A stretch of DNA of 64,000 nucleotides from Indioceanicola profundi (GTDB taxonomy: Bacteria > Pseudomonadota > Alphaproteobacteria > Azospirillales > Azospirillaceae). The notes under the pieces were generated by a model. That model was not told where the DNA came from, made no database searches, and worked only from the letters and a program-made list of their open reading frames with translations. Of this stretch, positions 13,757 to 60,550 are shown in pieces (the stretch's first letter is position 1; each line of letters starts with the position of its first letter). Made by a program: the position numbers and the translations under genes. The stretch spans positions 1-64,000 of the forward strand of contig NZ_CP030126.1 of NCBI RefSeq assembly GCF_003568845.1, read 5' to 3'.

Positions 13757-15584
<1,828 letters not shown>

Positions 15585-15664
15585 GGAAACAGGATATGCG
15601 CCTTCGTCTCTGGGCACGTTGCGCCGGGAGGGTACGCCACACCCTCTCCGTTCCGGCGTTCCGG

Positions 15665-17455
15665 TCAGCCCAGAATGCCGTTGAAATCGTCCAGCAGGGC
15701 GGCGATGCGGCCGCTGTCCGACTGCTGCATGATGATCTCCGCCCGACGGCCGGCTTCCGCCAGATCCAGTGAGCGGACACGGCGCTTCACCAGGGGCAGG
15801 TTTCCCGGCGCCATGGACAGGTCCCGAACGCCAAGACCCAGCAGCAGGGCCGCATAGCGCGGATCGCCCGCCATTTCCCCGCAGACGCTCACCGGGATGT
15901 TGTTGCGGCGTGCAGCCGCCGTGGTGAACTGGACCAGCCGCAGAACGGCCGGGTGCAGGGGATCGTACAGATGGGCCACCTGCTCGTCGCCGCGGTCGAT
16001 GGCCAGGGTGTACTGGATCAGGTCGTTGGTGCCGATGGCGAAGAAATCCACCATCGGCGCCAGCGCGTCGGCCGACAGCGCCGCCCCCGGCACTTCGATC
16101 ATGATGCCCAACTCGGGCAGGGGATTGGCGATGGGCACGCCCCGCCGGCGCAGGCGGCGCGCCACCCGCGCCAGAACCTCCCGCACCTGCCGCACCTCGC
16201 CGACAGAGCAGATCATGGGCAGCAGGATGCGGAGCCGGCCATGGACGGCGGCCCGCAGCATGGCGGCAAGCTGGGTCTCCAGCAGCTTGGGCTCCAGCAG
16301 TCCGAGACGGATAGCGCGCAGCCCCAGGGCCGGATTCGCCGGCTCGCCGAAATGACGGCTCAGCGCGCCGGCCAGCTTCTCACCGCCGATATCCAGGGTG
16401 CGGGCCGTGACCGGCCTGCCGTCCATGCGTTCCACCAGACAGCGCAGGGTCTCGTACTGCTCCTCCTCGTCGGGCAGGTCCTCCCGGTTCATGTAGAGGA
16501 ACTCGGTGCGCAGCAGGCCGATGCCTTCCGCCCCCACCTCGGTCGCCGAATCGACATCCCGCGGCAGCTCCAGATTCGCCTGGAGCGACACATGCGCGCC
16601 GTCCCGGGTGACGGAGGGCAAGGCGCACAGGGACTTCAGCCGCTTCCGCTCCGCCAGCCAGTCGTCCCGGCGCAGGCGGTACTCGGCCAGCAATTCCGCC
16701 GGCGGATTCAGATGGACGCGGCCGGCGATGCCATCCACCACCACCATGTCGCCGGACTGCACGCCTTGCAGCAGACCGGCCGCACCCAGCACCGCGGGCA
16801 GGTTCAGTGCGCGGGCCATGATGGCGGTATGTCCCTCCGCCCCGCCCAGCACGGTGGCGAATCCGCCGATCCGGCGCGGGTCCATCAGGGCCGTGTCGGC
16901 GGGCGTCAGCTCCTCCGCCAGGATGATCGACCCCTCTGGCAGCAGGGAGAAGGCCTGATAGGGGCTTTCCAGCAGGTTCCGGATCAGCCGTCGCCCCACC
17001 TCCCGCACATCGGCCACGCGGGCGGCCAGATAGGCGTCGTCCATGCTGGAGAAGGACTGGGCGATGGCCCCGATCTCCGCCTGCACGGCGGCCTCGGCAT
17101 TCAGCAGCTCATCCTGGATGCGCCGCTCCACCCCGCGGATCAGGCGGGAGCCGGTCAGCATGGCCAGATGCGCCTCCAGCAGGAAGCCGACATCCTCGGC
17201 CGCCGCGTCGGGCAGGGCGGCGGCCTTGGCCTTCAGCTTGCGGACCTGCCGCCGCGCCTTCTCCACCGCGGCGTGGAAACGCGCGGTCTCCGCATCGGTA
17301 TCGGTGGCGGAGACGCTGTATTCGGGCACCTGGACGGCCCCGCTCTCCACCACATGGGCAGGGCCTATGGCGATGCCGGCGGAGACGCCCACGCCGCGCA
17401 GCACGCGCTCCTGCCCCGGCTGGCTTGCGGCGCGGTAGCGGTCGGTGCGCTGCAT
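15665..17455 (-). CDS. ptsI: Phosphoenolpyruvate-protein phosphotransferase (PTS enzyme I)
   Basis: Enzyme I takes phosphate from PEP and passes it to HPr. This 596-residue protein has the N-terminal HPr-binding and phospho-His domain with GGAEGHTAIMARAL (active His209), then the PEP-binding TIM barrel (LLRTEFLYMNREDLP, PMICSVGEVRQ, IGIMIEVPGA-like segment, FAIGTNDLIQYTLAIDR, SVCGEMAGDP). There is no N-terminal GAF domain, so it is EI rather than the EI(Ntr)/PtsP architecture. It is the last gene of hprK-rapZ-EIIA-HPr-EI, four bases after ptsH. No PTS permease is nearby, pointing to a regulatory role. Confidence 0.96.
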   Translation of the reverse strand: MQRTDRYRAASQPGQERVLRGVGVSAGIAIGPAHVVESGAVQVPEYSVSATDTDAETARFHAAVEKARRQVRKLKAKAAALPDAAAEDVGFLLEAHLAMLTGSRLIRGVERRIQDELLNAEAAVQAEIGAIAQSFSSMDDAYLAARVADVREVGRRLIRNLLESPYQAFSLLPEGSIILAEELTPADTALMDPRRIGGFATVLGGAEGHTAIMARALNLPAVLGAAGLLQGVQSGDMVVVDGIAGRVHLNPPAELLAEYRLRRDDWLAERKRLKSLCALPSVTRDGAHVSLQANLELPRDVDSATEVGAEGIGLLRTEFLYMNREDLPDEEEQYETLRCLVERMDGRPVTARTLDIGGEKLAGALSRHFGEPANPALGLRAIRLGLLEPKLLETQLAAMLRAAVHGRLRILLPMICSVGEVRQVREVLARVARRLRRRGVPIANPLPELGIMIEVPGAALSADALAPMVDFFAIGTNDLIQYTLAIDRGDEQVAHLYDPLHPAVLRLVQFTTAAARRNNIPVSVCGEMAGDPRYAALLLGLGVRDLSMAPGNLPLVKRRVRSLDLAEAGRRAEIIMQQSDSGRIAALLDDFNGILG

Positions 17456-17459
17456 CGGC

Positions 17460-17777
17460 CTAATCCTCGTCGAACTTGCGGTCGACGAGATCCTTCAGCG
17501 CTGCAACGGCGGCGGCCGCGTCCGGCCCGGTGGCGCTGACGAAAATGGAAGTGCCCTGTGCCGCCGCCAGCATCATCAGTCCCATGATGGACTGACCGCT
17601 GACCCGCGAATCCAGACGCTCCACCTCCACCTCCGCATTGAATTCGGCGGCAGTCTTGACGAACTTGGCGGCCGCGCGGGCGTGCAGGCCGCGTCGGTTC
17701 CGGATTTCCAGCGTTGCGGTGACGGGTTCGGCGGCGGGGCCGGGGGCGCCGCCGGTGGGGTCTGCCTGGTCTGTCAT
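17460..17777 (-). CDS. ptsH: HPr family phosphocarrier protein
   Basis: A 105-residue HPr with a Pro/Ala-rich N-terminal extension of about 18 residues. The active site NRRGLHARAAAKF carries His32, phosphorylated by EI. The regulatory site SGQSIMGLMML carries Ser63, the expected target of the HprK encoded in the same operon. It lies three bases after the EIIA gene. In alphaproteobacteria this HPr links EI to EIIA(Man) and EIIA(Ntr) rather than to sugar uptake; that role here is inferred from the missing permeases. Confidence 0.96.
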   Translation of the reverse strand: MTDQADPTGGAPGPAAEPVTATLEIRNRRGLHARAAAKFVKTAAEFNAEVEVERLDSRVSGQSIMGLMMLAAAQGTSIFVSATGPDAAAAVAALKDLVDRKFDED

Positions 17778-17780
17778 GGA

Positions 17781-18185
17781 TCACCCCTCAGCCAGCAGGG
17801 AGGAGGCCACATTGATGTATTTGCGCCCGGCCTCCTGTGCGGCCTGGACGGCGTTGCGCAACGAGCTTTCCGTCTTTCGGACGGAGGCGAGCTTGATCAA
17901 CATGGGCAGGTTGATGCCGGCGATCACCTCCACCTTCGCCCGGTCCATGATGGAGATGGCGAGGTTGGAGGGGGTGCCGCCGAACATGTCGGTCAGCAGC
18001 ACGACGCCGTCGCCGGCATCGCATTCCGCCACGCGGGCGAGGATTTCCTCCCGCCGCCGCTCCATGTCGTCCTCGGGACCGATGCAGACCGCGCGGACCT
18101 GCTGCTGCTCCCCCACCACATGCTGGAGGGCGGCGATGAACTCCTCGGCCAAGCGACCGTGGGTGACTAGGACCATGCCGATCAT
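17781..18185 (-). CDS. Mannose-family PTS EIIA domain protein
   Basis: A stand-alone 134-residue EIIA(Man)-type protein. MVLVTHGRLAEEF contains His9, the phosphorylation site, and VLLTDMFGGTPSN is the family signature loop. In other alphaproteobacteria a single-domain EIIA(Man) (often called ManX or PtsM) sits between HprK/RapZ and HPr and serves in signalling, because no EIIB/EIIC partners exist. The same order is seen here. It begins 29 bases after rapZ. Confidence 0.93.
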   Translation of the reverse strand: MIGMVLVTHGRLAEEFIAALQHVVGEQQQVRAVCIGPEDDMERRREEILARVAECDAGDGVVLLTDMFGGTPSNLAISIMDRAKVEVIAGINLPMLIKLASVRKTESSLRNAVQAAQEAGRKYINVASSLLAEG

Positions 18186-18214
18186 TTCAGTACCGGGAGC
18201 CTCCCTCAGGTGCC

Positions 18215-19201
18215 CTACCGCACGGCGTCCGCCTGCCGGATCTCCCCGTCCGCGATGGACGGGGGGGCCGGTGACGCCGCATGCGGGGCGAGTGCCGGGG
18301 CTTTCCGCTCCAGGTCGCGATGGGCCTCCTTGACGTTATAGCCGCGTTCGCGCAGCCATGCCGCCAGTTTATGCGTGGTGAAGACGGATCGGTGCTTGCC
18401 GCCCGTGCAGCCGATCGCGATCGTCAGGTAATACTTGCCCTCATGCGCGTAGCGGGGCAGCAGCGGCTCGATCAGCCGCGTGAAGTTCCCGAAGAAGCCG
18501 TTGAAGTCGGGGTCCTGCTCGATATAGCGCTGCACCGGCTCATCCAGGCCGGTCATGGGCCGCAGGCGCGGGTCCCAGTGCGGGTTGTCCAGGAAGCGGA
18601 CATCGAACACAAGGTCGGCCTCGCGCGGAACGCCGTGGCGGTAGGCGAAGCTGGTGACGAAGATGTGCAGTTCCGGGCCGCCATCCAGGTGGAAATGGCC
18701 GGACAGGATGCGGCGAAGATCGTGCACCGACAGGTCGGACGTATCCACCGTGACGTCGGCCCTCTCCGCCACGCGGGACAGCAGGGCGCGCTCCAGCGCG
18801 ATGCCGTCCGCCACCGGCCGGTCCATGGCATGGGGATGCGGCCGGCGCGTCTCCATGTAGCGCCGCTGCAGGGCGTCGTCCTGCGCATCCAGGAACAGGA
18901 GCTGCACGTCGAATTCCGGCCGCTGGGAAAGGGCGGCCAGCGCGTCCAGGAGCCGATCGGCCGTGAAGTCGCGCGTACGGCTGACCAGACTTACGGCCAG
19001 CGGGCGGTCATGCCCCTGCGCCACCAGGGCGGTCAGCAGCGACAGGCGTAGATTGTCGACTGCCTCATAGCCCAGATCCTCCAGGCAGTTCATGGCCGTG
19101 GACAGGCCGGCGCCAGACATGCCGGTTACCACCACCAGCGGCAGCCTGCCGTCCTTGCGGGCTTCCGTCCCGGAGCGTTCCGGGCTGCGGACGTCACTCA
19201 T
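18215..19201 (-). CDS. rapZ: RapZ-family nucleotide-binding protein
   Basis: A 328-residue member of the RapZ/YvcJ family, which binds nucleotides and, in enterobacteria, acts as an RNA-binding adaptor controlling glmS. The N-terminal P-loop region VVVTGMSGAGLSTAMNCLEDLGYEAVDN is clear, but residue 33 of the loop is Leu where Lys or Arg is usual. The C-terminal domain has FAYRHGVPREADLVFDVRFLDNPHW and IGCTGGKHRSV, the most conserved family blocks. The ATG overlaps the hprK stop by eight bases, so the two are probably translationally coupled. The regulatory target in this organism is unknown. Confidence 0.94.
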   Translation of the reverse strand: MSDVRSPERSGTEARKDGRLPLVVVTGMSGAGLSTAMNCLEDLGYEAVDNLRLSLLTALVAQGHDRPLAVSLVSRTRDFTADRLLDALAALSQRPEFDVQLLFLDAQDDALQRRYMETRRPHPHAMDRPVADGIALERALLSRVAERADVTVDTSDLSVHDLRRILSGHFHLDGGPELHIFVTSFAYRHGVPREADLVFDVRFLDNPHWDPRLRPMTGLDEPVQRYIEQDPDFNGFFGNFTRLIEPLLPRYAHEGKYYLTIAIGCTGGKHRSVFTTHKLAAWLRERGYNVKEAHRDLERKAPALAPHAASPAPPSIADGEIRQADAVR

Positions 19202-19667
19202 GCCGTCCTCCCGCAATGGCGGTGAACCGGGGCGGGACCGCGGGCTGGCCTGCGGCGGCAGCCGAGGCGGCCAGCCGCAGCTTGGCCGGGGCCGAAGCCT
19301 CGAACGGGGCGATGGCGACCCGGGGAACGGGCAGGCCGCAGAGCAGGACCGTCTGCGGTTCCGGCAGCCGGTCCGCCTCTCCACTCCCGACCAGATCGGC
19401 GACCAGCGCCAGTGGCGCGTCGGCGGCATGGGGAACCGGCAGGATGCCGACTCCGCGTACTTCGAGAAGGCCGGCCAGCTCCTGCGGAGCGCGGGCGTGG
19501 ACCCGGCCATCCTTTTCCTCCAACTCCACCCGGTCATCGGCGATGAGCAATGCGCCGCCATCGATCAGGCGGAGCGCCAGATCGGATTTGCCGGCTCCGG
19601 AGGGGCCTCGCAGCAGGACCCCGGCGCCGGCCAGACTCACACAGGTGGCGTGAAGGCTGACCATCAT
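19194..19667 (-). CDS. hprK: HPr kinase/phosphorylase, short alphaproteobacterial form
   Basis: A 157-residue HprK containing only the C-terminal catalytic domain, as is usual in alphaproteobacteria, against about 310 residues in Firmicutes. LLRGPSGAGKSDLALRLID is the P-loop, and ADDRVELEEKDGRV with GVGILPV follow as in the family. It should phosphorylate the regulatory Ser of HPr encoded two genes downstream. Two tandem ATGs (19667, 19664) are possible starts. It is first in the five-gene PTS operon; the chvG/chvI two-component genes often found upstream in relatives are absent here. Confidence 0.94.
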   Translation of the reverse strand: MMVSLHATCVSLAGAGVLLRGPSGAGKSDLALRLIDGGALLIADDRVELEEKDGRVHARAPQELAGLLEVRGVGILPVPHAADAPLALVADLVGSGEADRLPEPQTVLLCGLPVPRVAIAPFEASAPAKLRLAASAAAAGQPAVPPRFTAIAGGRHE

Positions 19668-19766: not shown

Positions 19767-20216
19767 TTAGGGCTCGTGCGCGCCGCCACGAACCTTCTCA
19801 AGCTGCCGGTCGAAATCAACGGCGAGGTCGGCCAGGGTCACCTTCTCCAGGCGGGAGATGAGCAGCGCTTCCGCCTCGCGCAGGGCGCTGTCCAGCGCGG
19901 CATTGACCGCCTGCTCCACCAGGCATTCGGGATTGTCCACCGCCGGGCCGATGGCGAAGACGGGCGGCTCCCCCAGCGCGCGGTAGACATCCAGGAGCGT
20001 GATCCCGGACAGCGGCCGCGCCAGCCGCCAGCCGCCGCCATGGCCCTTCTCCGACTGCACATAGCCCTTGTCCCTGAGGCCGGCCATGGTGCGGCGGATG
20101 ACCACCGGATTGGTGTTGAGCATCGCCGCGATGGTCTCGGAGGTCGCCGCACCCTCATGCCGATCCATGTGGATCAGGACGTGCAGCATGCGGGACAGGC
20201 GGCTGTCATGTCTCAT
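19767..20216 (-). CDS. Rrf2 family transcriptional regulator
   Basis: A 149-residue winged-helix regulator. LSRMLHVLIHM, then SETIAAMLNTNPVVIRRTMAGLRDKGYVQS forms the HTH, and the wing is EKGHGGGWRLARP. Only one cysteine is present (Cys98), so unlike IscR or NsrR it cannot hold a cluster on three cysteines and may sense redox or electrophiles through a single thiol. The ATG at 20216 matches the usual family start; another lies 21 bases upstream. It is divergent from a flavoprotein gene, and the gap contains a long inverted repeat, its probable operator. Confidence 0.92.
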   Translation of the reverse strand: MRHDSRLSRMLHVLIHMDRHEGAATSETIAAMLNTNPVVIRRTMAGLRDKGYVQSEKGHGGGWRLARPLSGITLLDVYRALGEPPVFAIGPAVDNPECLVEQAVNAALDSALREAEALLISRLEKVTLADLAVDFDRQLEKVRGGAHEP

Positions 20217-20280
20217 CGGGAACTGGCCTTTCTTCACCTCGCCAAGGTCGGCGCCGGGTTAGCTAGCATCTTCAGGGTCA

Positions 20281-20342
20281 CGAAACAACAAAGGTTACGA
20301 AAGCCATTGACCGCGCCGCATCACGTAACTTATGTTGTTTCG
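20281..20342. promoter_or_regulatory. Long imperfect inverted repeat, candidate Rrf2 operator
   Basis: A 19-base arm at 20281-20299 (CGAAACAACA then AAGGTTACG) and its reverse complement at 20324-20342 match at 17 of 19 positions, with 24 bases between them. The outer ten bases are exact (CGAAACAACA and TGTTGTTTCG). GGTYACGAAA also occurs twice as a direct repeat (20276-20285 and 20293-20302). The site is centred between the divergent Rrf2 and flavoprotein starts. Confidence 0.6.
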
Positions 20343-20408
20343 AGAATAGCCGCGCGGGAACCGTCTCCGGAAAAGCCCGTGCGGCGTGATCAGGAAAGGA
20401 TGAATCCG

Positions 20409-21332
20409 ATGACCCATCACGCAATCATCGTGGGCGGCAGTTACGCGGGACTCGCCGCCGCGCTCCAGTTGGCCCGTGCCCGCCGGCGGGTCCTTGTCCT
20501 GGACGAGGGTATCCGCCGCAACCGCTTCGCGGCGGCTTCCCACGGTTTCCTCGGTCAGGACGGACGCCCGCCGGGCGCGATCGCCGCCGACGCCCGCGCG
20601 CAGCTCATGGCCTATCCGGCCGTGACCTGGATTGGCCGGCGCGCGGAGCGGGCGGAGAGGACCCGCACCGGCTTCCGCATCACCGATGCGGCCGGGGAGA
20701 GTCATGAGGCGGAGCGGCTGGTGCTGGCCACCGGAGTCGTCGACGATCTGCCGCCCATTCCCGGCCTTGCCGAGCGCTGGGGCCGCTTCGTCTTCCACTG
20801 TCCCTACTGCCATGGCTATGAACTCATGGAGGGGCGGATCGGCGTGATCGCGGCCTCGCCGCGCGCCATGCATCATGCGGTGATGCTGCCGGACTGGGGG
20901 CCTACCACGCTGTTGCTCAACGGCGCGTTCGAACCGGATGCGGATCAGCGAGCCCAACTCGAACGCCGCGGCGTCACGGTGGAGGCAGGCCCGATCCGGG
21001 AAATCGGCGGGGAGAAGGCCGATGTGGTCCTGGCGGATGGGCGTGTCCTGCCCTTCGACGGGCTTTTCACCCAGCCTTGGACGCGGATGGCGAGCCCGCT
21101 TGCGGAACAGCTCGGCTGCGCGCTGGAGCAGGGGCCGCAGGGCTCCTTCATCAGGACGGACGCCCTCAAGGAAACCAGCATCACCGGCGTCTTCGCCTGT
21201 GGCGACGCGGCTCGGGCCGCCGGCTCCGTGGCGCTGGCCGTGGGCGACGGCAGCATGGCCGGGATGGCGGTGCACCAGTCGCTGATCTTCCGGGCCGCCG
21301 TTCAGGCCGAGGGGGAAGCGCTCCCCGCCTAG
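20409..21332 (+). CDS. Thioredoxin-reductase-like FAD/NAD(P) oxidoreductase
   Basis: A 307-residue pyridine-nucleotide flavoprotein. IIVGGSYAGLAAALQLARARRRVLVLDEG binds FAD, FHCPYCHGYE carries a redox cysteine pair (Cys131, Cys134), and TGVFACGDAAR closes the FAD site. The layout matches low-molecular-weight thioredoxin-reductase relatives often paired with Rrf2 or MarR regulators. The start at 20409 has AGGAAAGG at good spacing; an ATG nine bases earlier is too close to it. The likely role is thiol or quinone redox balance under the divergent Rrf2 gene (inference). Its stop overlaps the stop of the opposite gene in CTAG. Confidence 0.92.
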   Translation: MTHHAIIVGGSYAGLAAALQLARARRRVLVLDEGIRRNRFAAASHGFLGQDGRPPGAIAADARAQLMAYPAVTWIGRRAERAERTRTGFRITDAAGESHEAERLVLATGVVDDLPPIPGLAERWGRFVFHCPYCHGYELMEGRIGVIAASPRAMHHAVMLPDWGPTTLLLNGAFEPDADQRAQLERRGVTVEAGPIREIGGEKADVVLADGRVLPFDGLFTQPWTRMASPLAEQLGCALEQGPQGSFIRTDALKETSITGVFACGDAARAAGSVALAVGDGSMAGMAVHQSLIFRAAVQAEGEALPA

Positions 21333-26651: not shown

Positions 26652-26730
26652 GTCATCCCGGCGGAAGCCGGGACCCAGGGCCGCAGGTACCGCCCTTGGG
26701 ACTCTGGGCCCCGGCTTTCGCCGGGGTGAC
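26652..26730. repeat. REP-like element: two facing GTCATCCCGGC palindromes
   Basis: Two units, 26652-26680 and 26703-26730, are each internally palindromic (TCCCGGCGGAAGCCGGGA and CCCCGGCTTTCGCCGGGG) and lie as an imperfect inverted pair about 22 bases apart. A related unit occurs at 34350-34375. They could fold into a cruciform and also end transcription between the convergent genes. Confidence 0.7.
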
Positions 26731-60508: not shown

Positions 60509-60550
60509 GTCACGCCTGTGGATGCGGCAGGCCGCATCCACAGGCGTGAC
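60509..60550. repeat. 42-bp palindrome with 20-bp perfect arms
   Basis: GTCACGCCTGTGGATGCGGC is followed by AG and then its exact reverse complement. The two-base centre is too short for an RNA loop without melting some pairs, and there is no U run. It lies between the DUF2934 gene and the NSS transporter, the only conspicuous element in a 387-base gap (60255-60641) with no supported gene. Confidence 0.8.

What the first reader, a model, noticed from the sequence alone, without database searches (positions are those of the whole stretch)
20270..20345. Long inverted repeat between an Rrf2 regulator and a thioredoxin-reductase-like gene
Two 19-base arms match 17/19 with centres about 43 bases apart, four helical turns. 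Within each arm GGTYACGAAA-like repeats recur. This spacing suits two dimers on the same DNA face or looping. The regulator has only one cysteine (Cys98), so it is not a cluster-binding Rrf2 protein. Together with the CxxC flavoprotein it could be a compact redox-sensing switch.
Basis: partly seen in the sequence, partly recalled or inferred. Interest (0 to 1): 0.5.

Follow-up and report, generated by a model that had tools for sequence, protein, structure and literature searches.

The report
Paired operators for a one-cysteine repressor
The repeat is two complete binding sites for a gene-switch protein with one invariant cysteine; the same switch elsewhere controls a flavoenzyme that resembles known toxin-disarming enzymes, a methyltransferase, or apparently both, so it may be an inducible defence against sulfur-containing natural toxins.

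Summary
The inverted repeat is real, but it is not one long palindrome: each arm is a complete 19-bp dyad (YGWAAC-N7-GTTWCR), centres 43 bp apart. In 95 deduplicated loci (window included) where regulator and flavoprotein genes diverge, a motif learned only from operon-type relatives finds two sites in 92, spaced 40-44 bp in 87. Operon-type relatives have one site (21 of 22), mostly over the regulator's start codon. Seventeen distant flavoprotein homologues without a neighbouring regulator lack sites. The right site covers the -10 of the flavoprotein promoter; the left lies upstream of its -35. This fits a two-operator repression switch.

The regulator belongs with single-cysteine Rrf2 repressors (YwnA/SifR-like); Cys98 is invariant in 153 of 153. 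The flavoprotein is DepH/DnoP-like: CPYC present, NADPH motifs absent. Of 35 regulator loci without the flavoprotein, 27 carry a SAM methyltransferase. In one genome the only close regulator sits beside a methyltransferase, while the flavoprotein on another contig carries the same 42-bp operator pair. Oxidation and S-methylation are both known ways to disarm gliotoxin. I therefore propose, unproven, a thiol-sensing switch for defence against dithiol/disulfide natural products.

The parts
19770..20216 (-). Rrf2-family regulator, 149 aa, one cysteine (Cys98, codon 19923-19925); stop codon at 19767-19769
   Evidence: Pfam Rrf2 117.1 bits vs cut-off 30; best PDB match 1ylf, then 1xd7 YwnA; Cys98 in 153 of 153 homologues; Cys98 directly precedes helix 99-125 in the model
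20281..20299 (.). Left operator, dyad CGAAAC-N7-GTTACG, centre 20290; upstream of the flavoprotein -35; overlaps the putative regulator -35
20324..20342 (.). Right operator, dyad CGTAAC-N7-GTTTCG, centre 20333; the predicted -10 of the flavoprotein promoter lies in its core
20307..20336 (+). Predicted flavoprotein promoter: -35 TTGACC 20307-20312, spacer 18, -10 TATGTT 20331-20336
   Evidence: consensus scan, 1 found against 0.1 in shuffles; a hexamer matching TTGACA at 5 of 6 or better lies between the sites in 78 of 95 divergent loci, in 65 of these 25-26 bp before the right centre
20260..20288 (-). Putative regulator promoter: -35 TTGTTT 20288-20283, spacer 17, -10 TAGCTA 20265-20260
   Evidence: read by eye from the sequence, not reported by the scan; only weakly supported across relatives
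20409..21332 (+). FAD disulfide-oxidoreductase-fold protein, 307 aa, DepH/DnoP-like, CPYC at residues 131-134 (20799-20810), no NADPH motifs
   Evidence: PDB 3fbs E 2e-111 and DepH E 3e-104; 57.7 bits vs the thioredoxin reductase cut-off 343.45; motif comparison

Best explanation
A two-operator repression switch. Reduced dimers of the one-cysteine Rrf2 regulator sit on two full operators about four helical turns apart between the divergent genes. The right-hand dimer covers the -10 of the flavoprotein promoter and blocks it; the left-hand dimer sits just upstream of that -35 and over the regulator's own putative promoter, giving autorepression. Modification of Cys98 at the start of the dimerisation helix by a thiol-reactive compound releases the dimers and induces the flavoprotein. 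The flavoprotein is a DepH/DnoP-type CxxC flavoenzyme that re-oxidises or otherwise disarms the inducing compound. Shown by sequence: the operators, their conservation and spacing, their link to the regulator, invariant Cys98, the enzyme family. Inferred: repression, Cys98 chemistry, inducer, enzyme activity. The confidence given is for the two-operator switch worked by this regulator; the inducer and enzyme steps are less certain.
For: A motif trained on 22 operon-type loci finds two sites in 92 of 95 divergent loci, 87 of them spaced 40-44 bp; two sites appeared in 0.13% of 4750 shuffles. Distances from the sites to the two start codons vary widely while the inter-site distance does not. Operon-type loci have one site in 21 of 22. 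No site upstream of 17 of 17 distant flavoprotein homologues without a neighbouring Rrf2 gene. One nearer homologue without a neighbouring regulator (L181) does have a pair, 42 bp apart, and its genome encodes one close regulator on another contig. The right site coincides with the predicted -10. Cys98 in 153 of 153, at the N-terminus of helix 99-125. The operator format equals the SifR site TGTAA-N9-TTACA, and SifR C102 is the sensing thiol (PMC9218516).
Against: No binding, expression or chemistry data. No site was found in 6 of 35 regulator loci without the flavoprotein, in the one flavoprotein-first locus (L096), or in one operon (L145); in L166 the second site is below threshold. The six type B methyltransferase loci are divergent but have one site each, so a divergent pair does not need two. 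Spacings of 17, 34, 37 and 39 bp occur. Loci are related, so counts are not independent, and motif training was seeded with the expected consensus. Gene starts are extrapolated from BLAST matches.
Confidence: 0.8

Rival explanations
1. The inducer is a quinone or similar electrophile, as for SifR; the flavoprotein and the methyltransferases deal with quinones or catechols.
For: The closest characterised one-cysteine Rrf2 repressor, SifR, senses quinones through its conserved Cys; it also bound a trxB operator weakly, left by its authors as a potential target only. Methyltransferases can O-methylate catechols (general knowledge); type B passes the Pfam UbiE cut-off.
Against: SifR's regulon is CatE, YwnB, YhdA, a ferric-reductase-domain protein and the Piu transporter (abstract), none of which is next to this regulator. 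The flavoprotein lacks both NADPH motifs and is closest to DepH-type structures. The SifR signature HxxPNPxC is only half kept (window PAVDNPEC).
Confidence: 0.25
2. The two sites are kept four turns apart only because each must serve a promoter of fixed geometry; there is no cooperation or looping.
For: The -35 keeps its place relative to both sites in most loci (25-26 bp before the right centre in 65 of 78); some spacings (17, 34, 37, 39) are not whole turns from 42.
Against: In L092 the spacing is 52 bp, one turn more, with the left site still 17 bp from the -35: a single example that suggests phasing.
Confidence: 0.5
3. A general thiol-redox switch: Cys98 forms a mixed disulfide with a cellular thiol under oxidative stress and the flavoprotein reduces disulfides.
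For: CxxC flavoprotein next to a one-cysteine regulator whose Cys is invariant.
Against: No NADPH motifs to take electrons; the genome has a separate true thioredoxin reductase; replacement by methyltransferases does not fit disulfide reduction.
Confidence: 0.2
4. The repeat is a chance or structural feature (terminator, hairpin) unrelated to the regulator.
For: Inverted repeats can be terminators; another, perfect one lies at 60509.
Against: No terminator-like site here; conservation, spacing and link to the regulator.
Confidence: 0.01

Closest known systems
SifR (Streptococcus pneumoniae) and YwnA (Bacillus subtilis), one-cysteine Rrf2 repressors
   Same: Rrf2 fold, one conserved cysteine at the start of the dimerisation helix, 19-bp operator of the form YGTAA-N9-TTACR
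   Different: N-P-x-C is kept but the H and first P of HxxPNPxC are not; Pseudomonadota; partner is a DepH-like flavoprotein or a methyltransferase rather than the SifR regulon; paired operators
DnoP (PA4170, Pseudomonas aeruginosa), DepH, TdpH, HlmI, GliT dithiol oxidases
   Same: CxxC FAD enzymes of the thioredoxin-reductase fold; the window protein matches DepH over nearly its whole length, and DnoP is placed in the DepH group
   Different: dnoP is induced by zinc starvation and that paper's main text has no occurrence of Rrf2; the window enzyme has an adjacent one-cysteine regulator and its activity is unknown; I did not compare it with the DnoP sequence itself
GliT plus GtmA of Aspergillus fumigatus
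   Same: An oxidase and an S-methyltransferase as two protections against a dithiol toxin (PMC5356443, abstract seen)
   Different: Fungal; S-methylation by the bacterial methyltransferases here is not shown, and GtmA is only a weak hit of type B (5egp, E 7e-6)
RsrR (Streptomyces venezuelae)
   Same: Rrf2 regulator that senses redox state; a divergent reductase-like partner gene is recalled
   Different: RsrR binds a 2Fe-2S cluster; this regulator has one Cys

Membership tests
Rrf2 superfamily | Rrf2 domain over the curated cut-off | tested here: met
   117.1 bits vs 30. Foldseek: 30 hits at E <= 0.001, those with a specific name being RsrR, IscR, CymR or YwnA-type Rrf2 proteins, but TM-scores only 0.42-0.63 with large rmsd
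Cluster-binding Rrf2 (IscR, NsrR, RirA, RsrR) | Two or more conserved Cys ligands | tested here: not met
   Only Cys98 is invariant (153 of 153); the next column has Cys in 30 of 153
Dithiol Rrf2 (HypR, SaiR) | Two conserved Cys; equivalog score for HypR | tested here: not met
   HypR model 35.7 bits vs cut-off 180
One-cysteine Rrf2 class of PMC9218516 | Single conserved Cys at the N-cap of alpha-5 | tested here: met
   the paper's own sequence network was not rebuilt
SifR/YwnA subcluster (SSN cluster 6) | HxxPNPxC signature | tested here: not met
   Window has PAVDNPEC: NPxC kept, H and first P not (sequence; signature)
SifR/HypR operator type | TGTAA-N9-TTACA-like 19-bp dyad | tested here: met
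   Learned consensus CACGTAACTTnnnAAGTTACGTG and CATGTAACTTnnnAAGTTACATG
SifR-like quinone sensor | Quinone adduct at the Cys causes DNA release | not testable with these tools
   Needs protein chemistry
DepH/GliT/HlmI/DnoP dithiol oxidases | CxxC flavoprotein whose closest characterised relative is in the group | tested here: met
   3fbs (uncharacterised) 2e-111, DepH 3e-104, 4ntd 5e-45, GliT 1e-30 (that 4ntd is HlmI is recalled, the listing says thioredoxin reductase); CxxC columns in 124 of 124 rows, 111 of them different
DepH/GliT/HlmI/DnoP dithiol oxidases | Oxidation of dithiol natural products | not testable with these tools
   Needs enzyme assay
Thioredoxin-disulfide reductase (TrxB) | TIGR01292 cut-off and NADPH motifs GxGxxA and HRRxxxR | tested here: not met
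   57.7 bits vs 343.45; AASPRA and NGAFEPD in place of GGGNSA and HRRDSFR of the genome's own TrxB; aligned HRRxxxR in 0 of 124 rows, GxGxx[AGS] in 4 of 124

The most novel reading that the evidence does not exclude
A widespread, so far undescribed inducible defence of Pseudomonadota against dithiol/disulfide natural products (gliotoxin- and holomycin-like). A one-cysteine Rrf2 sensor and its operator are a fixed module; the effector is exchanged between two chemistries that disarm dithiols, re-oxidation by a DepH/DnoP-like flavoenzyme or methylation by SAM methyltransferases of three sequence types. Some genomes carry both in one transcription unit, and in one genome a single sensor appears to command both from two places.
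Probability: 0.4. Interest if true: 0.75.

Novelty: new variant of a known kind. Interest (0 to 1): 0.55.

Why it matters
One-cysteine Rrf2 repressors are described as a large subfamily (15.9% of sequences in non-singleton clusters) 'not yet characterized' apart from SifR (PMC9218516, passages). This work supplies an operator, an architecture and partner genes for a branch of it in Pseudomonadota, and so a direct assay. If the partner exchange means defence against dithiol toxins, it gives a concrete way to test how soil and root bacteria sense and disarm fungal and bacterial sulfur toxins, a counterpart to DnoP of P. aeruginosa.

Tried and rejected
One long cruciform or terminator: rejected, no terminator-like site and each arm is a separate conserved dyad. 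Thioredoxin reductase: rejected on cut-off and motifs. Cluster-binding regulator: rejected.

A wider regulon in this genome is not excluded. 25 one-mismatch sites exist besides the two exact ones; 13 were scored with their flanks, the best 11.9, 9.8, 6.8 and 4.9 against 27.5 and 21.8 here, the other 12 were not scored. The 9.8 site (L197) lies about 180 bp upstream of a minus-strand reading frame and could be a weak target.

Led nowhere or faulty: one search looked for a second pair with a spacing of 42, so it could not find even the window's own 43-bp pair; its zero says nothing. One search used a wrong reading frame as the genome's TrxB; redone. One search (321 genomes of another class) gave 2 matches, so no larger spacing sample. 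The methyltransferases could not be named: none of the NCBIfam hits shown for the three reaches its cut-off.

Literature: Rrf2 with gliotoxin, 0 papers; Rrf2 with holomycin, 2 papers, passages seen, unrelated mentions; a six-term search, 0. Searches (12 of 49 listed; 12 of 20 listed; 20 of 62 listed) and 64 brought SifR, DnoP, GtmA and background. The library is open-licence PMC only.

Rows dropped: the 103 divergent and 32 codirectional loci became 95 and 23 (22 regulator-first, 1 flavoprotein-first) after removing repeats by the first 60 bases. Flavoproteins with a stop in the match or 250 residues or fewer were left out; 124 rows kept, the window's own included, 111 different, 109 from deduplicated loci. 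The 17 controls are 17 of the 20 places that had no locus; two (G687, G769) were left out because one search shows Rrf2 next to them, one (G551:C9) because it lies at a contig end. L110's 33% methyltransferase match is not counted among the 27.

Full report
WHAT IS THERE. Between the regulator gene (19770-20216, minus strand) and the flavoprotein gene (20409-21332, plus strand) lies an inverted repeat with arms 20281-20299 and 20324-20342, 17 of 19 complementary (22 bases at 86%). Each arm read alone is a dyad: CGAAAC-AACAAAG-GTTACG and CGTAAC-TTATGTT-GTTTCG. Two copies of one symmetric site look like a long inverted repeat. These two are the only exact matches to YGWAACN7GTTWCR in the 5,374,982-base genome. 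About 1.2 matches are expected there by composition, but only about 2e-5 pairs within 60 bp. The one promoter found by the scan (TTGACC, 18, TATGTT) puts its -10 in the core of the right site.

COMPARISON. Of the 80 named loci, 75 have the flavoprotein gene divergent, 1 has it on the same strand upstream, and 4 have none in the held flank. Pooled and deduplicated, 153 regulator loci remain, the window's included: 95 divergent with the flavoprotein, 22 operons with the regulator first, 1 with the flavoprotein first, 35 without the flavoprotein in the held flank.

OPERATORS. A symmetric 23-column motif trained on the divergent loci (CACGTAACTTnnnAAGTTACGTG) finds two sites above the 95% shuffle maximum in 94 of 95, spaced 40-44 bp in 88, with 42 bp in 52. 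As this motif was trained on the same loci, I trained one only on the 22 operon loci, one site each. It finds two sites in 92 of 95 divergent loci, 87 at 40-44 bp; in 4750 shuffles two sites occurred in 0.13% and a top-two spacing of 40-44 in 6.3%. Training started from the expected consensus and shuffles are first-order Markov draws. The exceptions are 17 (twice), 34, 37, 39 and 52 bp; 52 bp (L092) is one turn more. The left centre lies 29 to 153 bases from the regulator start and the intergenic length runs from 84 to 237 in the 75 named divergent loci, uncorrelated with spacing over all 95 (r = 0.05), so the inter-site distance is what is held. A hexamer matching TTGACA at 5 of 6 or better lies between the sites in 78 of 95, in 39 loci 26 bp before the right and 16 bp after the left centre. 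The regulator promoter is less clear: a -35-like hexamer in the left site reaches 4 of 6 in 38% of 89 loci, with a -10 at 17 bp in 9%. It is plausible in the window (TTGTTT, 17, TAGCTA; by eye).

LINK TO THE REGULATOR. Operon-type loci carry exactly one site in 21 of 22, in 19 of them over the regulator's start codon. Seventeen distant flavoprotein homologues (35.5-42% identical) have no Rrf2 match in the 2.5-kb stretches taken, and no site within 250 bp upstream (0 of 17, best score 2.7 against the 4.65 used); 11 of them lie next to a TetR-like reading frame (TetR is my reading of the frame). One nearer homologue, L181 (50% identical, genome G735), has no regulator beside it either, yet carries a full pair (scores 27.3 and 22.4) 42 bp apart. 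G735 has one close regulator, on another contig beside a type C methyltransferase (L152), itself with two strong sites 44 bp apart (the next Rrf2 match is E 1.6e-7). In a loose whole-genome pattern search the two L181 sites are the only closely spaced pair among 23 matches in G735; the reversed control pattern matched 65 places. So one regulator probably commands both enzymes there.

THE REGULATOR. Rrf2 domain 117.1 bits; nearest solved structures 1ylf and 1xd7. Cys98 is present in 153 of 153; the next column has Cys in 30 of 153. The AlphaFold model (mean pLDDT 87.7) starts a helix at residue 99, which matches the N-cap position of SifR C102 as described in PMC9218516 (abstract, section 4 and 12 passages seen). 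That paper treats one-cysteine Rrf2 repressors as a large, mostly uncharacterised subfamily, with SifR binding TGTAA-N9-TTACA and released by quinones at C102. The window protein keeps NPxC but not the whole HxxPNPxC signature, so I place it in the one-cysteine class without calling it SifR.

THE FLAVOPROTEIN. Best solved matches are 3fbs (2e-111) and DepH (3e-104). It is far below the thioredoxin reductase cut-off (57.7 vs 343.45 bits). Against the genome's own true TrxB it has AASPRA and NGAFEPD in place of GGGNSA and HRRDSFR; of 124 rows none has both NADPH motifs and 4 have GxGxx[AGS], while both CxxC columns are Cys in 124 of 124. DnoP of P. aeruginosa, in the DepH group, re-oxidises reduced gliotoxin and holomycin (not romidepsin) and its deletion strain is more susceptible to gliotoxin; it is induced by zinc starvation (PMC11317636, abstract, sections 8, 10, 11 and passages seen).

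PARTNER EXCHANGE. Of the 35 regulator loci without the flavoprotein, 27 have a class I SAM methyltransferase: 19 of type A, all on the regulator's strand, 18 of them directly downstream, 6 of type B and 2 of type C, all divergent (Pfam of six examples). 26 of these 27 have the operator, the exception being L153. Of the other 8, 3 have it. Regulator, flavoprotein and a type A methyltransferase occur together in L009 and L123 (one strand) and in G597 (L135/L167, flavoprotein then methyltransferase, the latter matching in two frames, so perhaps broken); L183 has a remote match (30%) downstream of the flavoprotein. On a tree of 106 regulators the type A label needs 7 changes, at least 4 forced by well-supported branches; L009 (both enzymes) and L010 (methyltransferase only) are sisters. 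Type C passes the Pfam thiopurine S-methyltransferase cut-off (34.2 vs 26 bits) and matches a thiol methyltransferase structure at 5e-7, not as the top hit; types A and B have no specific name. In A. fumigatus the dithiol form of gliotoxin is disarmed by the oxidase GliT and the S-methyltransferase GtmA (PMC5356443, abstract seen). Exchange or joint control of a dithiol-oxidase-like enzyme and methyltransferases under one sensor is what a defence against dithiol compounds predicts. It is also compatible with a quinone/catechol response. Methyltransferases are common genes, and their substrates here are unknown.

MECHANISM. Most likely: repression of the flavoprotein by a dimer on its -10, autorepression through the left site, and induction when Cys98 is modified by a thiol-reactive compound. 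Whether the two dimers cooperate is open: the spacing fits four turns, but the promoter alone could fix it.

VERDICT. Observation confirmed and sharpened; interpretation partly supported. New variant of a known kind. In the held library no paper has both Rrf2 and gliotoxin, and two mention Rrf2 and holomycin only in unrelated ways.

Noticed in passing
L181 (genome G735, contig 4, 149778-149838): A flavoprotein gene with no regulator beside it carries two operators 42 bp apart with a TTGACA between them; the genome's one close regulator is elsewhere, beside a methyltransferase: a probable regulon in trans.
   Followed up: yes
L208-L213 and L215-L219 (11 of the 17 loci): A more distant flavoprotein group (about 41% identical to the window's) is next to a TetR-like frame instead of Rrf2: another regulator for the same enzyme family.
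   Followed up: partly
L129 and L130, upstream of the regulator: Distant regulators (43-46% identical) carry two strong sites 26 bp apart (L129 a third, weak one); in L129 the divergent gene looks like a CobW/G3E GTPase (recalled as zinc-related), which could tie in with zinc-chelating dithiols.
   Followed up: no
L056, L062, L065: Two Ochrobactrum and one Rhizobiales locus keep the two operators but the divergent flavoprotein is only 34-37% identical (CPFC in L056), a possible replacement.
   Followed up: partly
window 60509-60550: Perfect 19-bp inverted repeat with a 4-base loop, perhaps a terminator.
   Followed up: no
window 26652-26730: G+C-rich imperfect inverted repeat found in several registers (17 of 19).
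   Followed up: no
window 15177-15617, minus strand: Reading frame that resembles a PIN-domain protein by eye; no search run.
   Followed up: no
window 15665-19667, minus strand: Frames that look like a phosphotransferase-system regulatory set with HPr kinase, HPr and enzyme I, just beyond the regulator; recalled, not searched.
   Followed up: no
L004, flavoprotein frame: The flavoprotein matches only over residues 21-135, so it may be broken there, yet both operators are kept.
   Followed up: no
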